Shown here piece by piece: positions 1 through 4,283 of a stretch of DNA of 64,000 nucleotides. The notes beneath the pieces were generated by a model. The model ran no database searches, was not told the origin of the DNA, and saw only the letters and a list, made by a program, of their open reading frames with translations. The DNA is from an uncultured Bacteroidota bacterium. Lineage in GTDB: Bacteria; Bacteroidota; Bacteroidia; Flavobacteriales; Flavobacteriaceae. The position numbers and the translations under genes were made by a program. The stretch is from assembly GCA_902594745.1 (NCBI GenBank), contig CACJNF010000001.1, forward strand, positions 62,001-126,000, read 5' to 3'. How positions within the stretch are numbered: position 1 is the first letter of the stretch; each line of letters starts with the position of its first letter.

Positions 1-471
1 GTAATGTACTTTGAGCATAAATATATATACAGAACTGTTTCTGAAGAGATCCCTGAGAATTATTATACTCTTGAACTAGGAAAAGCAAAGATTAGATCAA
101 TCGGTGCTGATGCAACAATAATTACATATGGATTAGGTGTTCATTGGGCTTTAGATATAATAAAATCTTTTAAAAATTATACAATTGAAATCATAGATTT
201 AAACACTCTTATCCCGTGGGATAAAGAACTGGTTTTCAATTCAATAAAGAAAACAGGTAAAGTATTACTTTTAAGTGAAGACACTCTAATTAATGGGTTT
301 ATAGGAGAAATTTCAGCTACTATTTCAGAAGAGATTTTTGAATACTTGGATGCTCCAATTATTAGAGTAGGATCTTTAGATACACCTGTTCCTTTTTCAA
401 ATAATCTTGAGAAAGCTTTCTTGTCTAACAGTAGATTAAAAGAAAAATTGGAAAAACTTTTAAAATATTAA
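1..471 (+). CDS. 2-oxoacid dehydrogenase E1 component, C-terminal part (partial at window edge)
   Basis: This is the C-terminal third of a thiamine-dependent E1 (beta or fused alpha/beta) of a branched-chain 2-oxoacid or pyruvate dehydrogenase complex, which decarboxylates the oxoacid and passes the acyl group to E2. The motif FEHKYIYR followed by a transketolase C-terminal fold (TIITYGLGVHWAL, then LLLSEDTL and RVGSLDTPVPF) is typical of the family. The frame is open at base 1, so the ORF-track ATG at base 4 is internal. The length resembles the tail of the roughly 650-residue fused E1 of Flavobacteriia, but the upstream half is not visible. The stop overlaps the next gene as TAATG. Confidence 0.85.
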   Translation, partial: VMYFEHKYIYRTVSEEIPENYYTLELGKAKIRSIGADATIITYGLGVHWALDIIKSFKNYTIEIIDLNTLIPWDKELVFNSIKKTGKVLLLSEDTLINGFIGEISATISEEIFEYLDAPIIRVGSLDTPVPFSNNLEKAFLSNSRLKEKLEKLLKY

Positions 472-926
472 TGGAATACACAAAATTATACTCTTCATTA
501 GAAAAATTAAAGGAAGAAACTACTCCTAAATGGGGTAGGATGAGCTCTTCGATGATGCTTAAACATTGTTCTGCATTTGTTGACGTATATCTTAATAAAA
601 CAAAACTTAACCCTTTTATTTTCATAGTAGGGTTTGTCTTTGGAATATTCCACAGGCTTTATCTAAAGTATATAGTTAGGTATAATGTTAAAAACTACAT
701 TAAAAATCTTCCTACACTTAAAGTATTTAATACTTATCAAAGCAAAAATCTTGATTTTGAATTTGAAAAAAATAAGCTAATCACTGACTTAAAAGAAGTA
801 GAATCCATTGATAATAAATACTTATTTAATAATTTTCATGGAGTAGTTCCTAATAAAGCATTCAAAAAGGTAGTCTACTTTCATACATCATATCATCTAT
901 ATCAATTTGATGTATATAAAACCTAA
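471..926 (+). CDS. DUF1569 (DinB-like) family protein, copy 1
   Basis: A small protein of the DUF1569/DinB-like helical-bundle superfamily. The N-terminal signature TPKWGRMSSSMMLKHC, with its conserved W-G-x-M and M-x-x-H-C, is seen directly, and a late HTSYHLYQF segment supplies a second His pair near the C-terminus. Members are thought to bind metal or thiol cofactors, but the function is unknown. It begins on the stop of the E1 gene (TAATG), so it is probably cotranscribed. A paralog lies at 3840-4283. The end overlaps the convergent mscL stop by 4 bases. Confidence 0.8.
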   Translation: MEYTKLYSSLEKLKEETTPKWGRMSSSMMLKHCSAFVDVYLNKTKLNPFIFIVGFVFGIFHRLYLKYIVRYNVKNYIKNLPTLKVFNTYQSKNLDFEFEKNKLITDLKEVESIDNKYLFNNFHGVVPNKAFKKVVYFHTSYHLYQFDVYKT

Positions 927-1366
927 TTTTTCTTTGTTAGATTTTTATTTAAATCTTTTAGTGAATCATTAATCTCTGTTAGAAGCTTTATGTTCCTTGG
1001 TGTTGAGACCTTTTTATTACTAGGGTCTTCAGCTTGTATCTTTAATTTGTTCAGAAACTTTATTACAATGAAAATTGTAAATGCTACTATCATAAAGTCT
1101 ATAAAAGTTTCAATAAAAAACCCATAATTAATAGCTACTTCTTCATTAATTATGTCACCAGAGGAGCTTAAATCTGCTTCCCTTAGAATTATCTTCTTTG
1201 AATCTATATTTAACCCATTAGAAAGTAAAGATAGAGGAGGAAGTAGTATTTGTTTAACCAGCACGTCTATAACAGAGTTAAATGAGGCTCCTATGATAAT
1301 ACCGATAGCCATTTCCATCATGTTTCCTTTTACAGCAAACTCTTTGAACTCATTGAGTAATTTCAT
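923..1366 (-). CDS. mscL: Large-conductance mechanosensitive channel MscL
   Basis: An inner-membrane channel that opens under membrane tension and releases solutes during hypo-osmotic shock. The N-terminal helix and TM1 are classic (NEFKEFAVKGNMMEMAIGII, then GASFNSVIDVLVKQILLPPL). TM2 (YGFFIETFIDFMIVAFTIF) follows a short periplasmic loop, and a charged C-terminal helix ends the protein. At 147 residues it has normal family length. It converges on the upstream DUF1569 gene, with overlapping stop codons. Confidence 0.96.
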   Translation of the reverse strand: MKLLNEFKEFAVKGNMMEMAIGIIIGASFNSVIDVLVKQILLPPLSLLSNGLNIDSKKIILREADLSSSGDIINEEVAINYGFFIETFIDFMIVAFTIFIVIKFLNKLKIQAEDPSNKKVSTPRNIKLLTEINDSLKDLNKNLTKKN

Positions 1367-1397
1367 TTTTTATATGTTTATTTATTAAATTTAACAA

Positions 1398-1802
1398 ATC
1401 AAAAGATTTTTTTTCTACATATCGTTACTATTTATAATTAGTTGCACAAAAGAAGATTCTATTGACTCAAATGCTTTTGTGTCACAAAATATGGATTTGG
1501 GTAAGAAAGCGGTAGGTGTAATTGTATCATCTCCAATCACATCTTCTTCACCAGTAACACAATACAAGCTAACAGTTGGTGCAAACCAAGGTGGATGGGT
1601 AAGTTTTGGAGAAACCTCTCTTCGACGTAGGACTGCCTTCTATATTTTTCGCCCAGCTGGAACTGAAGTAACTGTTAGTGCAGAACCAGCTGATGGATAT
1701 GTTTTCTCTGGCTGGTCTAATGGTTGGACAGCAAACCCAATAACTTTTAAGTTAAGCTCAAATATTGGCTTTTCAGCAGAATTTAAAACTACAAATGATT
1801 AA
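1398..1802 (+). CDS. InlB-repeat lipoprotein, first tandem copy, without a normal start codon
   Basis: The ORF track starts at GTG 1479, but the same frame runs upstream to about 1398 and encodes a full lipoprotein signal (KRFFFYISLLFIISC, then TKED). This matches the signals of the next two genes (MIKRLLYVSLIFILSC and MIKRLLRILIP...SC). Where those genes have CAA ATG ATT AAA AGA, this one reads CAA ATC AAA AGA, and a TAA lies one codon further upstream. It must therefore use ATC, be a decayed copy, or contain a base error. The mature part carries one InlB/Listeria-Bacteroides repeat (TVSAEPADGYVFSGWSNG). It overlaps the next gene by 8 bases. Confidence 0.6.
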   Translation: MKRFFFYISLLFIISCTKEDSIDSNAFVSQNMDLGKKAVGVIVSSPITSSSPVTQYKLTVGANQGGWVSFGETSLRRRTAFYIFRPAGTEVTVSAEPADGYVFSGWSNGWTANPITFKLSSNIGFSAEFKTTND

Positions 1803-1812
1803 AAGACTTTTA
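1733..1812 (+). repeat. Direct repeat, unit A of a 442-base tandem duplication
   Basis: The segment from the end of one InlB-repeat gene into the start of the next matches 2175-2254 without gaps at a constant offset of 442 bases. It contains two exact blocks: a 23-base one starting AAACCCAATAACTTTTAAGT (1733) and the 20-base AAATGATTAAAAGACTTTTA (1793). The gap between them aligns imperfectly. This shows that the gene and its stop/start junction were duplicated in tandem. Confidence 0.85.
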
Positions 1813-2244
1813 TACGTATCGTTAATATTTATTCTTAGTTGTTCTAAGGGAGAATTACCAGTTCCTCAAAACCTTGATACTTGGGAACCAATAATTGGTT
1901 ATAACACGCCAAAGAATTCGAATACTCAGGTAAGATATAATTTATCAGTTAACACAGTTGGATTACCTCCTGCAGTTAATCCTACTCCACCTGCTGGTCA
2001 TCACAATGGATATACTTTTGGCTACGCTGGATGGGCAAATTTAGAATACAATAACATCTTTAAGTATGGATGGGTAAGTTTTAATGAATCAATATTAGCT
2101 GGAACTGATATAATTATTACTGCAGTACCAGGTGAGGGATATGAATTTTCTGAGTGGTCTAATGGTCAAACAGTAAACCCAATAACTTTTAAGTTAAATT
2201 CAAATACAGACCTTACAGCGACATTTATTACAAGAAATGATTAA
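1795..2244 (+). CDS. InlB-repeat lipoprotein, second tandem copy
   Basis: A predicted outer-membrane or periplasmic lipoprotein of about 149 residues. I place the start at ATG 1795 rather than the track's 1765, because the protein then opens with a clean signal, MIKRLLYVSLIFILSCSKGE, with the lipobox Cys at residue 16. One divergent InlB B-repeat domain lies at the C-terminus (ITAVPGEGYEFSEWSNGQ). The start overlaps the preceding stop as ATGATTAA, and its own stop overlaps the next start in the same way. This implies translational coupling. The function is unknown; such repeats usually serve adhesion or surface scaffolding. Confidence 0.75.
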   Translation: MIKRLLYVSLIFILSCSKGELPVPQNLDTWEPIIGYNTPKNSNTQVRYNLSVNTVGLPPAVNPTPPAGHHNGYTFGYAGWANLEYNNIFKYGWVSFNESILAGTDIIITAVPGEGYEFSEWSNGQTVNPITFKLNSNTDLTATFITRND

Positions 2245-2254
2245 AAGACTTTTA
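2175..2254 (+). repeat. Direct repeat, unit B of the 442-base tandem duplication
   Basis: Second copy of the 1733-1812 segment. It again spans the end of an InlB-repeat gene and the 8-base ATGATTAA junction into the following lipoprotein. The constant offset shows no net indel between the copies across this segment. Confidence 0.85.
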
Positions 2255-3820
2255 CGCATATTAATACCATGCTTATTATTTGTAAATAGTTGTGCTAAGG
2301 ATACCACTGAGGACGACTCTTCAGTATATGTATCACCCCCTTTTAATAACTCAAATACGGAATCACCTTCAACCTCAGTCACTCAGTTTACGTTAACTGT
2401 TAATGCAGGAGAGGGGGGAAGTGTGTCAACTACTGGAGGTACATATAATGATGGAACATCAATTAGTATAGTAGCTACTGCAAGTGAAGGTTATGAATTT
2501 ATTGGATGGACTGGTTCTGAATCTTCAAGTTCAAATATTACATTGACTTTAAGCTCAAATATTACAATAAGTGCAAATTTTGAAATTGATTGTAGTTATT
2601 GGCAAACAGATATTCCTGATTGGGAACAGACATCATATGAGCTTTTTGATATATTCTACCCACAAAATTATCAAGATTTAGGTGCACTATTAAACAATCA
2701 ATGGGGAGGAGAATCAGGAGAATATGGTCTTAATGTTATAAGTGTAGATTATAATAATGATGGTTATATGGATATAATAGGTTCATATAATGATTATTCA
2801 AACTTTATTGATTATCCAAGTGATTATTATGGATATGAAAGAAAGCAACTAATAAGGTTTTATAAAGGTAGTTGTGGAGGTAATTTTGAAGTTGATGAAT
2901 TAAATGATAGTAAATTTCTTGGATTAGTTCATGGAAGAAAAATCCTCTTAGGTGACTTTAATAATGATAACTATGTAGATCTCTTTCTTCTAGGCCATGG
3001 ATATGACAAACAACCTTTCAACGGTGAGTTCAACAAAGCTTTAATGAGTAATGGAGATGGAAGTTTTTTCGATGTTGACTATCAATCTTTTGAATCTTTC
3101 TATCATGGTGGTGCCTCTGGAGATATTGATAATGATGGTGACCTTGATATTGTGGCAGTTGATGGTGGCCGAGGAAAATCACTAATATATCAAAATTTAA
3201 ATGGTCAACTTGAACCAAATGAAACTCTTATTGATCAAGCTCTTATGAATCAAATGTACAATGCGGAGCTTTTTGATATCAATAATGATGGTTTTATTGA
3301 TCTAATTGCAGGTGGACATGACTGGTCATGGGGTCAGAATTCAGAATGTGAATGGTGGGACTGTAATACTTATGATAATGCACCGTTAATTATATATGGC
3401 GATGGGATTGATTTTATAAATAATGACTTTCAGAGATTGCCTGCCTCAGGTATTGATAAACAAGGTATCGTTACTAACTTTGAGTTTTTTGATTTTGATA
3501 ATGATGGTCAGGTTGAAATTATAATAACTAGAACAGGAGATAACATGAATGAAGAGCCAGGATTAGCTTGGGATCAAACTAACTTTTACAATGATTGGTC
3601 TATACAAATTCTAAAGCTTGACGGAGAAACCTATAGGGATGCAACCTCAAATTTCATTGATATATATTCTGGCAATGAACAGTGGATAAGATTTACTAAA
3701 ATAAAAGATATTGATGATGATGGGGCTCTTGAAATGTATAATACATCTAATCCGTACAGTGATCAAGATAATTACTTAGAATGGGAGATTGCATCAAATA
3801 TGTTAATAAAGATTAATTAG
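2237..3820 (+). CDS. Lipoprotein with InlB repeat and FG-GAP/VCBS beta-propeller
   Basis: A 527-residue surface lipoprotein. The order is: signal with lipobox FVNSC (Cys 19); Ser/Thr-rich linker; one InlB-type repeat (about 47-115, VNAGEGGSVSTTGGTY... GYEFIGW); then an FG-GAP/VCBS-type propeller to the C-terminus. At least five Ca-binding-like loops are visible: DYNNDGYMDI, DFNNDNYVDL, DIDNDGDLDI, DINNDGFIDL, DFDNDGQVEI and a last DIDDDGALEM. Integrin-alpha-like propellers bind ligands or glycans, and an adhesion role is an inference. It is the last gene of the coupled tandem array and the only one with a large added domain. Confidence 0.85.
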   Translation: MIKRLLRILIPCLLFVNSCAKDTTEDDSSVYVSPPFNNSNTESPSTSVTQFTLTVNAGEGGSVSTTGGTYNDGTSISIVATASEGYEFIGWTGSESSSSNITLTLSSNITISANFEIDCSYWQTDIPDWEQTSYELFDIFYPQNYQDLGALLNNQWGGESGEYGLNVISVDYNNDGYMDIIGSYNDYSNFIDYPSDYYGYERKQLIRFYKGSCGGNFEVDELNDSKFLGLVHGRKILLGDFNNDNYVDLFLLGHGYDKQPFNGEFNKALMSNGDGSFFDVDYQSFESFYHGGASGDIDNDGDLDIVAVDGGRGKSLIYQNLNGQLEPNETLIDQALMNQMYNAELFDINNDGFIDLIAGGHDWSWGQNSECEWWDCNTYDNAPLIIYGDGIDFINNDFQRLPASGIDKQGIVTNFEFFDFDNDGQVEIIITRTGDNMNEEPGLAWDQTNFYNDWSIQILKLDGETYRDATSNFIDIYSGNEQWIRFTKIKDIDDDGALEMYNTSNPYSDQDNYLEWEIASNMLIKIN

Positions 3821-3839: not shown

Positions 3840-4283
3840 ATGCAAATAGATAAGTTAATAAACGCAATAAATAAGCTTAATAAAGATTCAAAGCCTAAAT
3901 GGGGGATAATGAATTCATCACAGATGCTATGGCATTGTAATAAATTTATAATATTCTATCTTAATGAAAAAAAATATTCTCCAAACTATAAGACATATAT
4001 TTTTGGTTCTTTACATTTATTTTATCTTAAATATATTTTGAGGTTGAACTATGAAAAATATCCGAAAAATACACGAGCATTAAAGTTTTTTGATGCAGAG
4101 CGATCAAGTAATCTAATTTTTGAAGATGAACAAAAAAAGCTTATTGAAAGCTTAAAAAAGGTTAATAATTACAATGAAAAATATTTAACTAATACATTAC
4201 ATGGTAAGGTCGACAATTGGACATTAAAAGAAGTAGTCAGAGGGCATACAGCATTTCACCTTAATCAATTCGGAGTTTATTAA
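3840..4283 (+). CDS. DUF1569 (DinB-like) family protein, copy 2
   Basis: Paralog of 471-926, and similar throughout. It shares the KPKWGIMNSSQMLWHC signature, a matching mid-region (LHLFYLKYILRLNYEKYPKN against HRLYLKYIVRYNVKNYIKN) and the final HTAFHLNQFGVY. Length is 147 against 151 residues. The two copies flank the mscL and lipoprotein-array segment, which suggests a local duplication later split by, or enclosing, the array. Function unknown. Confidence 0.8.
   Translation: MQIDKLINAINKLNKDSKPKWGIMNSSQMLWHCNKFIIFYLNEKKYSPNYKTYIFGSLHLFYLKYILRLNYEKYPKNTRALKFFDAERSSNLIFEDEQKKLIESLKKVNNYNEKYLTNTLHGKVDNWTLKEVVRGHTAFHLNQFGVY

What the first reader, a model, noticed from the sequence alone, without database searches (positions are those of the whole stretch)
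1398..3820. Tandem duplication that copied a stop/start junction
A constant 442-base offset links 1733-1812 with 2175-2254, including the ATGATTAA overlap in which one gene's stop contains the next gene's start. Duplication here multiplies a coupled gene chain, each member with its own lipobox and one InlB repeat. The last copy gained a propeller.
Basis: seen in the sequence. Interest (0 to 1): 0.6.

Follow-up and report, generated by a model that had tools for sequence, protein, structure and literature searches.

The report
Coupled lipoprotein array with non-AUG start
In small-genome marine Bacteroidetes, a run of small outer-membrane-type lipoprotein genes grows and shrinks by recombination at a shared stop/start junction, and the first gene appears to be translated although it has no ordinary start codon in any of five related species.

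Summary
The 442-base repeat is real: 165 nt (1655-1819 / 2097-2261) at 79% identity, including ATGATTAA; no shuffle comes near it. In 25 congeneric genomes the site between mscL and a DUF1569-like gene holds 5, 4 or 3 coupled lipoprotein genes, a decayed remnant, an unrelated propeller lipoprotein, or only an 82-84 nt scar. The short genes (P1, P2, P4-P6) form one supported clade, and P1, P2 and P4 are each shared between species, so the duplications are old. 'The last copy gained a propeller' is not supported: P3's repeat lies outside that clade and P3 occurs elsewhere in other species. P3 was probably docked behind the array; its 5' end resembles P4's.

New: P1 has no ATG, GTG or TTG before its signal peptide in any of five species, yet those codons are under purifying selection (pN/pS 0.22). 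ATC AAA AGR is invariant. P4 (CTG ATT AAA AGA, three species) and one P3 (GAG ATT AAA AGG) also lack canonical starts. Best reading: translation begins at AUC/AUU-type codons and ribosomes pass down overlapping genes. Initiation and coupling are inferred, not measured.

The parts
1398..1802 (+). P1: 134-codon lipoprotein gene, one PF18998 repeat; starts ATC AAA AGA, no ATG/GTG/TTG before the signal peptide
1392..1400 (+). in-frame TAA (1392-1394), CAA, then the conserved ATC (1398-1400): only start-like codon ahead of the signal peptide
1795..2244 (+). P2: 149-aa lipoprotein gene, one PF18998 repeat, ATG start
2237..3820 (+). P3: 527-aa lipoprotein gene, one PF18998 repeat plus FG-GAP repeats (beta-propeller type)
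1795..1802 (+). P1/P2 junction ATGATTAA, 8-nt overlap of stop and start
2237..2244 (+). P2/P3 junction ATGATTAA
1655..1819 (+). first copy of the 165-nt block repeated at offset 442
2097..2261 (+). second copy of the 165-nt block, 79% identical
1650..1790 (+). PF18998 domain of P1 (residues 85-131)
2068..2226 (+). PF18998 domain of P2 (residues 92-144)
2390..2587 (+). PF18998 domain of P3 (residues 52-117)
2588..3820 (+). C-terminal part of P3 with the FG-GAP repeats
923..1366 (-). mscL, divergent; its start codon lies 31 nt from the ATC of P1; left border of the variable site
3840..4283 (+). DUF1569-like gene b; right border of the variable site
471..926 (+). DUF1569-like gene a, paralogue of gene b, beyond mscL

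Best explanation
This is an old tandem family of small signal-peptidase-II-type lipoproteins, each with one InlB-type repeat, at a variable site between mscL and a DUF1569-like gene. Copies expand, fuse and are deleted by recombination between near-identical stop/start and signal-peptide stretches, so the overlapping junction travels with the gene ends. P3 is a separate propeller-lipoprotein lineage docked at the 3' end; in this genome it probably acquired the junction when an intervening P4-like copy was deleted. The lead gene P1 has no AUG/GUG/UUG and is most likely started at the conserved AUC, a start class normally held low by IF3; ribosomes ending P1 then reinitiate on P2 and P3 through the 8-nt overlaps. 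Shown: array, variability, phylogeny, absence of a canonical start, selection on the signal peptide. Inferred: AUC initiation, coupling, recombination route, surface location.
For: Array and repeat. Variable site in congeners: P1-P2-P4-P5-P6 in G023, P1-P2-P4-P3 in G010, P1|P2-P4-P3 across a contig break in G015, P1-P2-other propeller gene in G022; remnant in G006 whose 5' end is P1-like and rest is broken P2, ending in a junction remnant; empty scars in G016 and G008 keeping 'AATCAAA..TTTTTT' joined to 'TTTAAAGATTAA'. Short genes one clade 100/97; P1, P2, P4 each cross-species clades; P3 elsewhere. 5' end of G000 P3 is closer to P4's (41-43/60) than to the corresponding gene of G022 (28/60). 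P1 start: ATC AAA AGR in 5/5, TAA at most one codon upstream in 4/5, no ATG at all between mscL and P1 in G010 and G022. Codons 1-31, all before the first in-frame ATG, pN/pS 0.22, 0/500 column shuffles as low; variable sites by codon position 9/3/18. P1 keeps its own signal-peptide residues, so conversion from P2 does not explain this. P4 CTG ATT AAA AGA in 3/3 and G020 P3 GAG ATT AAA AGG also lack canonical starts, while nearly all other PF18998 lipoproteins surveyed have ATG/GTG/TTG in place. infC of the genus also lacks a canonical start (GTT ATA GCW ATA AGA AGA AGA in all 12 genomes read). Precedent: infC ATT/ATC and sigR GTC, the latter in a coupled pair and IF3-repressed (PMC5472188); coupling through overlaps (PMC6728339).
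Against: No expression, ribosome or proteomic data. AUC initiation is normally weak. Part of the ATC AAA conservation could serve mscL: the other strand reads TTTGAT there, and it is kept in the empty sites. The P1 promoter is not identified; only 31 nt separate it from mscL's start. Only five P1 sequences, one partial. P4 sequences are too alike to test selection. The domain tree rests on 69 columns and many forks are open.
Confidence: 0.66

Rival explanations
1. P1 and P4 are no longer translated as lipoproteins: they lost their start codons and are decaying, serving at most as recombination partners.
For: No canonical start; decayed copies and deletions do occur at this site (G006, G016, G008).
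Against: All P1 frames are open over 134 codons (65 in the partial one) in five species, with purifying selection strongest in the signal peptide (pN/pS 0.22) and 0.39 in the body; a dead gene would not keep this.
Confidence: 0.12
2. P1 is translated from the internal ATG at codon 32 as a cytosolic 103-residue protein; the upstream part is leader DNA.
For: M32 is invariant in all P1 sequences.
Against: Codons 1-31 show a strong codon-position signal (9/3/18) and keep a lipobox Cys and following Lys in every copy; the paralogues are all lipoproteins.
Confidence: 0.06
3. ATC AAA is conserved because the opposite strand carries the -33 box (TTTG) of the mscL promoter; the true P1 start is another near-cognate codon nearby, such as the ATT at codon 4.
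For: TTTGAT on the minus strand is kept in all P1 loci and in the empty sites G016 and G008; the -33 TTTG box of Bacteroidetes promoters is from general knowledge.
Against: Codon 4 is TTT in this genome; mscL of G017 lacks the motif; P4 and the G020 P3 keep ATT AAA AGR with no mscL nearby. The two roles are not exclusive.
Confidence: 0.15
4. One reading: a recent duplication multiplied one lipoprotein gene and the last copy acquired a propeller.
For: 79% identity across the junction; same order of genes.
Against: Duplications predate the species compared, and the P3 repeat is outside the short-gene clade; P3 orthologues lie at other sites (G020, G011) and a repeat-less propeller orthologue exists (G019).
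Confidence: 0.05

Closest known systems
Divergent InlB B-repeat domain proteins (Pfam PF18998, Flg_new_2)
   Same: Each of the three proteins passes the Pfam cut-off with one domain.
   Different: Stand-alone one-repeat lipoproteins in an overlapping array; no internalin leucine-rich part. Short copies carry insertions and evolve fast (P2 pN/pS up to 0.95 between subgroups).
FG-GAP / VCBS-type repeat lipoproteins of the same genus
   Same: P3 has FG-GAP repeats plus one PF18998 repeat; long lipoproteins that begin with one or more PF18998 repeats are seen across the genus.
   Different: Here it sits directly behind the short-gene array with an overlapping start.
Tandem lipoprotein arrays of other bacteria (for example staphylococcal lpl; from general knowledge)
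   Same: Paralogous lipoprotein genes in a row with variable copy number.
   Different: No sequence relation was tested; here neighbouring genes overlap by 8 nt and the lead gene lacks a canonical start.
Genes with non-canonical starts under IF3 control: infC (ATT/ATC) and Streptomyces sigR (GTC)
   Same: Conserved near-cognate start; sigR is likewise the first of a coupled pair (PMC5472188).
   Different: P1 is a lipoprotein gene in a group that makes little use of Shine-Dalgarno motifs; IF3 control has not been shown.

Membership tests
PF18998 (Flg_new_2) | score above the curated Pfam cut-off | tested here: met
   P1 30.8, P2 41.1, P3 65.4 bits against 23.6
Bacterial lipoproteins (SPase II) | N-terminal signal peptide with lipobox Cys | tested here: met
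   read in sequence, no signal-peptide predictor was run: FIISC-TK, FILSC-SK, FVNSC-AK; Cys and Lys+2 invariant among the 13 short proteins aligned
Bacterial lipoproteins (SPase II) | actual lipidation and surface exposure | not testable with these tools
   needs labelling or fractionation
FG-GAP propeller proteins | FG-GAP family repeats above cut-off (P3 only) | tested here: met
   PF13517 56.5 bits (cut-off 26.9), PF01839 31 bits (22.1)
Translationally coupled gene pairs | overlapping stop and start codons | tested here: met
   ATGATTAA at 1795-1802 and 2237-2244
Translationally coupled gene pairs | downstream translation depends on upstream translation | not testable with these tools
   needs reporters
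Genes with a non-canonical start codon | no ATG/GTG/TTG available, frame upstream of next start under selection | tested here: met
   P1 in five species; pN/pS 0.22, 0/500 shuffles
Genes with a non-canonical start codon | initiation shown at that codon and repressed by IF3 | not testable with these tools
   needs reporters or ribosome profiling

The most novel reading that the evidence does not exclude
AUU/AUC followed by AAA AGR is a working, lineage-specific start for this lipoprotein family: the AUG in front of it is dispensable and was lost in P1, P4 and one P3, while AUU/AUC stayed. The whole coupled array would then be set by start-codon fidelity (IF3), like infC in the same genomes.
Probability: 0.3. 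Interest if true: 0.65.

Novelty: new variant of a known kind. Interest (0 to 1): 0.45.

Why it matters
It shows how a coupled gene chain can be lengthened and shortened without losing coupling, because the recombining stretch is itself the stop/start junction. It also gives a small, testable set of natural genes outside infC and sigR that seem to be translated from AUC/AUU/CUG. Gene callers that allow only ATG/GTG/TTG truncate P1 and P4 and remove the lipoprotein signal (the ATG-only calls did so), so such proteins would be missed as lipoproteins.

Tried and rejected
Frameshift from a short leader ORF into P1: rejected as a general cause, no ATG between mscL and P1 in G010 and G022. Gene conversion of the P1 signal peptide from P2: P1 keeps its own residues. 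Assembly artefact: five genomes agree, at least four of them with isolate names of the single-cell type. Structure route: the AlphaFold model of P1 is confident only in the repeat (mean pLDDT 64.8) and Foldseek against the PDB gave nothing with E below 0.001, so no function is drawn from it. Viral contigs: one weak 31% match, not followed. Literature searches for InlB-repeat lipoproteins in Flavobacteria and for tandem lipoprotein arrays found nothing useful.

Full report
Observation. The window lies at G000:C1:62001-126000 of a 1.27 Mb, 16-contig genome. Congeners matched by name are uncultured Bacteroidetes isolates AG-447-E18, AG-325-M19, AG-893-B06 and AG-447-K04; their contig lengths equal those of G010, G023, G022 and G015, so I take them as the same records. 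That they are marine single-cell genomes I take from the style of the names (general knowledge). The 442-nt offset is real and far beyond chance. P1 (1398-1802), P2 (1795-2244) and P3 (2237-3820) each have a lipobox and one PF18998 repeat; P3 has FG-GAP repeats as well. The two overlaps are ATGATTAA. Homology is gene-wide: the signal peptides match at offset 397 and the repeats at 442, so P2 simply carries extra sequence between them.

The site in relatives. Order is DUF1569-like a, mscL (opposite strand), array, DUF1569-like b, ybjQ-like gene. G023 has P1-P2-P4-P5-P6 without P3. G010 has P1-P2-P4-P3. G015 has P1 at the end of one contig and P2-P4-P3 from the start of another. G022 has P1-P2 and a different propeller gene. 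G009 has a GTG-start propeller lipoprotein with two repeats at the same place. G006 has a wreck whose first bases are those of P1, whose rest is P2 with stops, and which ends with a junction remnant GATTAAAAGACTTTTATAT. G016 and G008 have only 82-84 nt, in which a P1-like 5' end is joined to TTTAAAGATTAA, like the 3' end of a short copy. I read these as deletion products, by inference from their sequence.

Age and origin of the copies. In a tree of 62 PF18998 domains all 15 short-gene domains form one group (100/97), within which P1, P2 and P4 each group across species; the four P3 domains form another group when set against the short genes. P3 orthologues occur in G020 between a prohibitin-like gene and the ybjQ-like gene, with no mscL found there, and in G011 at another position; G019 has the propeller without a repeat. 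So the propeller protein is not an outgrowth of the last copy. The first 60 nt of P3 in this genome resemble P4's start more (41-43/60) than the corresponding gene of G022 (28/60), which fits loss of a P4-like copy by recombination in the signal-peptide stretch. Synonymous distances conflict along the locus: for DUF1569a the close pairs are G000-G022 and G010-G023, for DUF1569b they are G000-G010 and G022-G023, so the locus also seems to recombine between species.

The start of P1. In G000, G010, G015, G022 and G023 no ATG, GTG or TTG precedes the signal peptide in frame; a TAA is 0-1 codon upstream in four and further upstream in G022; ATC AAA AGR is invariant. The first in-frame ATG is codon 32, after the lipobox. 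Codons 1-31 show pooled pN/pS 0.22 against 0.39 for the body, variable columns 9/3/18 by codon position, and 0 of 500 column shuffles as low. This is what a translated signal peptide shows. A survey of PF18998 ORFs in the fetched loci found canonical starts almost everywhere else; the exceptions were P1, P4 (CTG ATT AAA AGA, overlapping the P2 stop as CTGATTAA) and P3 of G020 (GAG ATT AAA AGG). One further ORF (G013, 474 codons) is ambiguous. All exceptions keep ATT/ATC AAA AGR. P4 copies are nearly identical, so selection on them could not be tested; for G020 P3 low pN/pS over the whole gene (0.16-0.19) may predate the loss of ATG. infC, the textbook gene with a non-canonical start, has none in the 12 genomes of this genus that were read.

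Mechanism. Shown: old overlapping array, variable copy number, selection on a signal peptide without a canonical start. Inferred: initiation at AUC, low and IF3-sensitive as for sigR GTC and infC (PMC5472188); reinitiation down the chain through overlaps, as known in general (PMC6728339, PMC12548453). Bacteroidetes make little use of Shine-Dalgarno motifs (PMC6728339), and the P1 start region is weakly structured (-2.1 kcal/mol for 73 nt). The proteins are probably cell-envelope lipoproteins presenting a small beta-rich domain; the ligand is unknown and the structure search gave no lead.

Caveat. The opposite strand of ATCAAA reads TTTGAT, a possible -33 box for mscL, kept in the empty sites; this could account for part of the ATC conservation, though not for selection on codons further in. 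Verdict: observation confirmed, interpretation half right; the more interesting feature is the missing start codon, with moderate confidence.

Noticed in passing
G000:C1:267284-267487 (L123) and L127-L144: infC has no ATG/GTG/TTG: GTT ATA GCW ATA AGA AGA AGA is kept in all 12 genomes read, suggesting an AUA (or nearby) start.
   Followed up: partly
window 471-926 and 3840-4283: Two DUF1569-like paralogues flank mscL and the array; their synonymous distances pair the species differently, a sign of recombination within the locus.
   Followed up: partly
window 1152-1388: An open frame antisense to mscL ends 10 nt before P1; similar frames are open in the relatives. Probably a by-product of mscL coding, but the P1 transcript may run through it.
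   Followed up: no
L112 4677-6272 (G020): P3 orthologue, 87% identical, at another site and without a canonical start; synonymous distance 0.38 against 0.67 for the nearby prohibitin-like gene, suggesting transfer between species.
   Followed up: partly
L113 6306-7649 (G019): Propeller orthologue of P3 with a signal peptide but no InlB-type repeat.
   Followed up: no
window 1367-1397: Only 31 nt separate the divergent start codons of mscL and P1, so the promoter of at least one must lie inside the other gene.
   Followed up: partly
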